Position numbers and translations under genes: made by a program. 64,000 nt of DNA from Hypomesus transpacificus. Its lineage: Eukaryota > Chordata > Actinopteri > Osmeriformes > Osmeridae. How positions within the stretch are numbered: the stretch's first letter is position 1; each line of letters begins with the position of its first letter. Of the stretch, positions 30,875 through 37,532 are shown in pieces. The stretch is from assembly GCF_021917145.1 (NCBI RefSeq), contig NC_061071.1:956460-1020459 (forward strand), given 5' to 3'. The notes under the pieces were generated by a model. The model was not told the origin of the DNA. It made no database searches and was given only the letters and a program-made list of their open reading frames with translations.

Positions 30875-37532
<6,658 letters not shown>

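What the first reader, a model, noticed from the sequence alone, without database searches (positions are those of the whole stretch)
36642..36644. Copy A pump lacks the sodium site III aspartate (pig D926 is Cys932)
In copy A exon 19 the motif VQWADLI reads VQWACLI (codon TGT), while copies B and C keep GAT. This Asp contributes to the third, Na+-only site. In salmonids the freshwater alpha-1a isoform has Lys, Val and Ser substitutions at three cation-site positions, the Val being at this residue (933 in salmon numbering). Copy A shows an independent change to Cys without the other two. It may pump with altered Na+ stoichiometry or affinity, which suits ion uptake from dilute water or another special gradient. 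No other catalytic residue is lost.
Basis: partly seen in the sequence, partly recalled or inferred. Interest (0 to 1): 0.8.

Follow-up and report, generated by a model that had tools for sequence, protein, structure and literature searches.

The report
Sodium pump copy missing sodium-site aspartate
One of three side-by-side sodium-pump genes in a fish has swapped a strongly conserved sodium-holding amino acid for cysteine while staying an intact, selectively maintained gene, so this fish may own a pump that moves sodium differently from the textbook one.

Summary
Bases 36642-36644 read TGT (Cys932; pig D926) in exon 19 of the first of three tandem, same-strand Na+/K+-ATPase alpha-1 genes. Copies B and C, two alpha2/alpha3-type genes and an H,K-ATPase-like gene of the same genome read GAT (Asp in 5 of 6 genes read). 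GAT to TGT needs two base changes. Copy A has 22 exons, GT-AG introns and one terminal stop. Coding change in A and B is constrained (dN/dS about 0.20; 1 rejected), so A is not behaving as a pseudogene. The Cys lies outside the A-B gene-conversion tracts, in a divergent M5-M10 part that also carries V921L, L951I, A956I, N790E and P794A. Of 34 checked positions, 32 match pig. Mechanism (inferred): losing this carboxylate weakens or abolishes the Na+-only site III; human alpha-3 D923N loses >100-fold Na+ affinity. Copy A is probably a low-Na+-affinity and/or 2Na+:2K+ pump. The dilute-water role is unproven: lower Na+ affinity argues against it, and natural cation-site changes are reported from both fresh- and salt-water isoforms.

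The parts
36642..36644 (+). TGT (Cys932; pig D926 position) in copy A
36564..36694 (+). copy A exon 19 (M8 helix, site III motif VQWACLI)
30875..37532 (+). copy A, 22-exon alpha-1 gene, 1022 aa; e01 30875-30886, e02 31121-31228 to e22 37504-37532; GT-AG introns, one terminal stop
38769..46014 (+). copy B, 22-exon alpha-1 gene, 1022 aa, keeps Asp (GAT)
52669..60360 (+). copy C, exons 2-22 of an alpha-1 gene, keeps Asp (GAT), ends RETYY; first exon probably at 48497-48508 (MGRG, found by pattern only)
35708..35862 (+). copy A exon 16 (M5-M6): N776, E779, D804, D808 kept; N790E and P794A
36848..36949 (+). copy A exon 20 (M9): E953/E954 kept; L951I and A956I near them
33163..34115 (+). probable A-B gene conversion tract (e08-e10; the two introns 92% identical to B)
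35306..35707 (+). probable A-B gene conversion tract (introns either side of e15 90% identical to B over aligned bases; e15 differs at 2 of 169 bases in each pair of copies)
30529..30771 (+). upstream block shared with copy B (38425-38662), 75% identical, with a TATAAAGG box at 30731
29046..29723 (+). degenerate 3' end (part of intron 21, exon 22-like 29306-29334, 3' flank) of a former further tandem copy

Best explanation
Copy A is a selectively maintained Na+/K+-ATPase alpha-1 paralogue whose Na+-only site III has been weakened or dismantled by replacing its carboxylate ligand (pig D926) with cysteine, while sites I and II are intact. The most likely consequence is a pump with lower apparent Na+ affinity and strongly reduced occupancy of site III, tending towards electroneutral 2Na+:2K+ exchange. 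Steps shown: the substitution, the intact gene, constraint on coding changes, the unchanged ligands of sites I and II and the other site III residues. Steps inferred: that the protein is made, loss of Na+ binding at site III, changed stoichiometry, and any use in osmoregulation. My split: site III functionally impaired about 0.75; a real stoichiometry change to 2:2 about 0.35.
For: Codon and alignment. Asp kept in the 5 other X,K-ATPase genes read in this genome. Intact frame and splice sites. Branch models on e16-e19 plus e21 (213 codons): A+B dN/dS 0.20 against 0.034 background; fixing A+B at 1 costs 2dlnL about 41. Y771, T772, T774, S775, N776, E779, D804, D808, Q923, W924, C930, E953, E954 unchanged. 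Papers, passages only: site III in E1 is Y771 O, T774 O, Q923 and (in MD) D926 (PMC5026471); alpha-3 D923N lowers Na+ affinity >100-fold and not K+, and NKA C930R, which the authors explain by neutralisation of this Asp, is electroneutral (PMC9463140); protonated D926 favours release of site III Na+ in simulations (PMC5233988); D923N loses 80% of ATPase activity in membranes of expressing cells (PMC7949067); Asp933 named as essential to site III (PMC13317510). Thermodynamic floor for cell Na+ at 55 kJ/mol: 1.9 mM for 3:2 and 0.05 mM for 2:2 (assumed 150/4 mM outside Na/K, 130 mM inside K, -70 mV, 288 K).
Against: No kinetics, expression or orthologues. PMC5233988 cites a study calling the role of D926 'relatively minor', so 3:2 pumping with altered affinity is possible. 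The analogies are Asn and Arg mutants; no Cys mutant was seen, and a thiolate might still help to bind Na+. Faster evolution is shared by B (0.19 against 0.21 when separate), so it is no special mark of A, and no test here shows positive selection on codon 926. By random placement one of 25 unique changes would hit a ligand with P 0.37.
Confidence: 0.55

Rival explanations
1. Affinity variant only: Na+ still enters site III through Q923 and the Y771/T774 carbonyls, with Cys926 (neutral or thiolate) and repacking by V921L, L951I and A956I; the pump remains 3Na+:2K+ but with changed Na+ affinity, voltage dependence and proton leak.
For: The other site III residues checked are kept and A-specific changes lie nearby; a cited study calls the D926 role relatively minor (PMC5233988 passage).
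Against: D923N gives >100-fold Na+ affinity loss (PMC9463140 passage); in calculations D926N loses Na+ selectivity at sites II and III (PMC5026471 passage).
Confidence: 0.3
2. Slightly deleterious drift in a partly redundant copy: A lost the Asp because B and C cover the housekeeping need; no adaptive role.
For: A has 25 unique replacements against 7 in B and 11 in C; A and B both evolve faster than C and the outgroups; a further upstream copy has already decayed to about 0.7 kb.
Against: Exons, splice sites and 32 of 34 checked positions are intact; dN/dS of 1 is rejected; gene conversion has kept the core exons alike.
Confidence: 0.25
3. Low-salinity adaptation: a reduced Na+ per ATP lets ionocytes hold very low Na+ and take up Na+ from dilute water, as proposed for zebrafish atp1a1a.5 (recalled; the paper is not held).
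For: Lower thermodynamic floor for 2:2; zebrafish ionocyte types express different tandem alpha-1 paralogues (PMC10094795 passage).
Against: Expected loss of Na+ affinity works against it; species and habitat unknown; Anabas shows a cation-site change in both freshwater and seawater isoforms (PMC4006040 passage); [quoted passage not shown]
Confidence: 0.2
4. Sequencing or assembly error.
For: Only one assembly seen; no reads.
Against: Two base changes in one codon; the exon differs from B at 22 of 131 bases and is 75% identical in protein; introns clearly different from B.
Confidence: 0.02

Closest known systems
Salmonid freshwater alpha-1a
   Same: Teleost alpha-1 paralogue with the site III Asp lost (Val there, Cys here).
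   Different: Copy A keeps N776 and E953/E954; only one of the three changes is paralleled, with another amino acid.
Zebrafish atp1a1a.5 and the tandem atp1a1a cluster
   Same: Tandem alpha-1 genes of one orientation in a teleost (PMC4971688 passages).
   Different: Its cation-site residues could not be compared: Esbaugh 2019 is not held.
Human ATP1A3 D923N (rapid-onset dystonia parkinsonism)
   Same: Same residue neutralised; >100-fold Na+ affinity loss and 80% activity loss (passages of PMC9463140 and PMC7949067).
   Different: A disease allele with Asn; copy A is a genomic paralogue with Cys and further changes nearby.
NKA C930R mutant and non-gastric H,K-ATPase (Asp-Arg salt bridge)
   Same: Site III Asp neutralised in another way, with electroneutral transport (PMC9463140 passages).
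   Different: Copy A keeps Cys930 and removes the Asp itself.
Brine shrimp Na,K-ATPase alpha2KK (PDB 8k1l, listed)
   Same: Natural pump paralogue with altered cation site; a paper title calls a brine shrimp pump one of reduced stoichiometry.
   Different: Its Lys substitutions (recalled as N324K/N776K) are absent: copy A has Asn at both.

Membership tests
Na+/K+-ATPase alpha-1 (P2C ATPase) | Best full-length sequence match to solved Na,K-ATPase alpha-1 chains rather than H,K-ATPase | tested here: met
   best alpha-1 chains about 1990 bits, Potassium-transporting (H,K) chains at most 1471 bits
Na+/K+-ATPase alpha-1 (P2C ATPase) | TGES, DKTGT and TGDGVND motifs and KETYY C-terminus | tested here: met
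   for the motifs; KETYY in the translation
Na+/K+-ATPase alpha-1 (P2C ATPase) | Ligands of cation sites I and II | tested here: met
   V322, A323, V325, E327, T772, S775, N776, E779, D804, D808 as in pig
Classical 3Na+:2K+ pump | Complete Na+ site III (Y771, T774, Q923, D926) | tested here: not met
   D926 is Cys; the other three kept. Filed as an alpha-1 paralogue, not as a proven 3:2 pump
Classical 3Na+:2K+ pump | One net charge per cycle | not testable with these tools
   needs electrophysiology
   N776 kept, D926C not Val, E953/E954 kept; the salmonid sequence itself was not seen
Brine shrimp alpha2KK type | Lys in M4 and M5 (recalled N324K, N776K) | tested here: not met
   Asn at both
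H,K-ATPase | Lys at pig S775 and Arg at pig C930 | tested here: not met
   Ser and Cys in copy A; the genome's own H,K-like gene has Lys and Arg
Pseudogene | Broken frame or neutral dN/dS | tested here: not met

The most novel reading that the evidence does not exclude
Copy A is a natural vertebrate sodium pump that runs without its third sodium site: a single ligand loss (Asp to Cys), with local repacking in M8-M9 and sites I and II untouched, has made an electroneutral 2Na+:2K+ pump that this fish uses alongside ordinary 3:2 pumps from neighbouring genes.
Probability: 0.22. Interest if true: 0.8.

Novelty: new variant of a known kind. Interest (0 to 1): 0.52.

Why it matters
The site III Asp was kept in the 5 other Na,K- and H,K-ATPase genes read in this genome, and its neutralisation in human alpha-3 causes disease (PMC9463140 passage). 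A maintained paralogue without it would be a natural experiment on how pump stoichiometry and Na+ affinity evolve, with a sister gene that keeps the Asp (copy B, 92.5% identical over 982 residues) as comparison. It would make a question usually asked with artificial mutants testable in a living animal.

Tried and rejected
I take it as a teleost from the gene set and the tandem alpha-1 pattern; this is inference.

A test of faster evolution in A alone looked significant (A 0.23 against 0.048 for e16-e21; e17-e19 0.37 against 0.038; e04-e15 0.245 against 0.043). In one search copy B as sole foreground was also significant (P 0.0014) with an absurd estimate (19.6), and C was not (P 0.33). I therefore refitted with A and B both free: A 0.21, B 0.19, no difference in likelihood. 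A-specific acceleration is rejected; the shared A+B acceleration stands, with the caveats that the tree is assumed, the code is my own and gene conversion breaks the single-tree assumption. Exon 20 was left out because B and C are identical there (0 of 102 differences).

Clustering of A-unique changes in e16-e21 (15 of 25; binomial P 0.00025) is confounded by gene conversion, which has erased changes in the middle exons; I do not use it as evidence of selection. The A-unique count takes only positions where the other sequences present agree; L006 covered only e12-e21, L009 lacked e09 and e22, and the pig row was cut at about residue 970, so coverage is uneven. Most of the gene's N-terminal exon 2 was not compared. 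The pairwise MAFFT alignment misplaced e03 (47% identity, against 78%).

One search used an off-frame reference and found nothing; ignored. Forkhead-like motifs upstream of A and B were not pursued: only one lay in a comparable place. Structure prediction was not attempted: I read the tool's letter-for-letter rule as excluding spliced proteins. Papers sought but not held: Esbaugh 2019, Einholm 2010, Moreno 2022, Artigas 2023, and the DOI I recalled for Dalziel 2014. Literature searches. In the listings and passages that I saw there was no natural Cys at this site, but one search returned no paper, and most subscription papers are missing, so I do not claim absence from print. Every paper cited was seen as passages only, except PMC4971688, of which I also read section 12.

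Pfam was run on 30 ORFs of the window out of 448 of at least 55 aa listed, so other genes may be present.

Full report
What is there. The window is part of a 437,198,280-base, 376-contig assembly without a name (contig 12, 956460-1020459). It holds three tandem genes for the Na+/K+-ATPase alpha-1 subunit, all on the + strand: A (30875-37532), B (38769-46014) and C (52669-60360 plus a probable first exon at 48497, found by pattern only). I built 22-exon models for A and B and exons 2-22 for C. For exons 2-22 all 21 acceptors are AG and all 20 donors GT in each gene, and each frame has one stop, at its end (after correcting C exon 21 to start at 59805). Upstream of A lies a decayed 3' end of a former further copy (29046-29723). 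The other protein genes recognised, from 30 ORFs tested with Pfam, are a claudin-like gene and a serotonin receptor 1F-like gene at 2.9-5.9 kb.

The observation. Codon 36642-36644 is TGT. In the PDB alignment model residue 928 of copy A (932 of the precursor) faces pig D926. B, C, two alpha2/alpha3-type genes (contigs 2 and 4) and an H,K-ATPase-like gene (contig 2) read GAT, so Asp is kept in 5 of 6 genes whose exon 19 I read. The genome search scores only its best candidates, and one weak hit on contig 17 (E 3e-4) was not followed, so the number of genes is a lower bound. GAT to TGT takes two changes through TAT (Tyr) or GGT (Gly), so the carboxylate was probably lost before Cys was reached, unless both bases changed at once.

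Is the gene maintained? Over e03-e22, pairwise dN/dS is 0.14 for A-B, 0.14 for A-C and 0.10 for B-C. Branch models on 213 codons of e16-e19 and e21, with the two alpha2/3-type genes as outgroups, give 0.20 for A and B together against 0.034 elsewhere (2dlnL 29.9 against one ratio); fixing A and B at 1 gives lnL -1910.33 against -1889.95. A and B do not differ (0.21, 0.19). So A is constrained, and both A and B evolve faster than the rest; nothing marks A alone, and no test here shows positive selection on codon 926. Divergence is uneven along the gene: e08-e10 and the surroundings of e15 are near-identical between A and B including introns (90-92% over aligned bases); e15 differs at 2 of 169 bases in every pair; e20 is identical in B and C. 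This is the pattern of gene conversion. The introns around e17-e22 are 55-61% identical between A and B, so the region with the Cys lies outside those tracts.

What else differs. Of 982 residues from e03 on, A has 25 replacements at positions where the other sequences present agree, B 7 and C 11. Of 34 positions chosen for cation binding, neighbouring structure, ouabain contact and phosphorylation, A matches pig at 32; the exceptions are D926C and N790E. In M8-M9 A also has V921L, L951I (three residues before E954) and A956I (two after it). Copy B has T781S, a change that PMC4368207 (passage) reports in electric eel alpha-1c2 and alpha-2 and links to a changed free energy of Na+ and K+ binding.

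How it probably works. The Na+ of site III is held by Y771 O, T774 O, Q923 and D926 (passages of PMC5026471, where D926 appears in the MD column, and of PMC9463140). Neutralising the Asp (alpha-3 D923N) lowers Na+ affinity >100-fold and leaves K+ affinity alone, and NKA C930R, interpreted as neutralising the same Asp, is electroneutral (PMC9463140). By analogy copy A should bind Na+ poorly at site III and, if it still turns over, tend towards 2Na+:2K+. The analogy is to Asn and Arg mutants; no Cys mutant was seen. A cited study calls the role of D926 relatively minor (PMC5233988), so a 3:2 pump with altered affinity remains open.

Why a fish might keep it. With 150/4 mM Na+/K+ outside, 130 mM K+ inside, -70 mV, 288 K and 55 kJ/mol ATP, the lowest cell Na+ reachable is 1.9 mM at 3:2 and 0.05 mM at 2:2. 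That would favour uptake from dilute water, but the expected affinity loss works the other way, and natural site changes are reported in both fresh- and seawater isoforms (PMC4006040) and, for brine shrimp, in extreme salinity (title only). The habitat is unknown.

Novelty. A tandem teleost alpha-1 paralogue with a changed cation site is a known kind (Anabas, PMC4006040 passage; salmonids and zebrafish recalled). Loss of the site III Asp as the only changed ligand, to Cys, is a variant that I did not meet in the listings and passages seen, which cover only open papers.

Noticed in passing
29046-29723: Degenerate 3' end of a further tandem alpha-1 copy: exon 22-like sequence whose stop codon reads CGA instead of TGA, plus 3' flank shared with A and B.
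   Followed up: partly
33163-34115, 35306-35707, 45270-45371 and 59466-59567: Mosaic of near-identical tracts between the tandem copies (e08-e10 and e15 with introns in A-B; e20 identical in B and C), as expected from gene conversion.
   Followed up: partly
44041-44195: Copy B exon 16 carries T781S and N790D in M5-M6, so B is not an unchanged pump either; A has N790E at the same loop position.
   Followed up: no
60332-60360: Copy C ends RETYY instead of KETYY, as PMC4368207 reports for electric eel alpha-1c1.
   Followed up: no
4675-5889 (-) and 2910-4212 (+): A single-ORF serotonin receptor 1F-like gene and a claudin/PMP22-like gene lie upstream of the cluster.
   Followed up: partly
14454-14526 and 15028-15159: SNORD58 and SNORA31 snoRNA matches 0.5 kb apart on the + strand, suggesting an intron-bearing host gene; no Pfam match in the few ORFs tried there.
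   Followed up: partly
29375-29428 (-): UnaL2 LINE 3' element inside the remnant copy.
   Followed up: no
60119-60574 (-): ORF with a sub-threshold Pfam match (PF05310, 19.9 bits against a cut-off of 25); probably chance.
   Followed up: no
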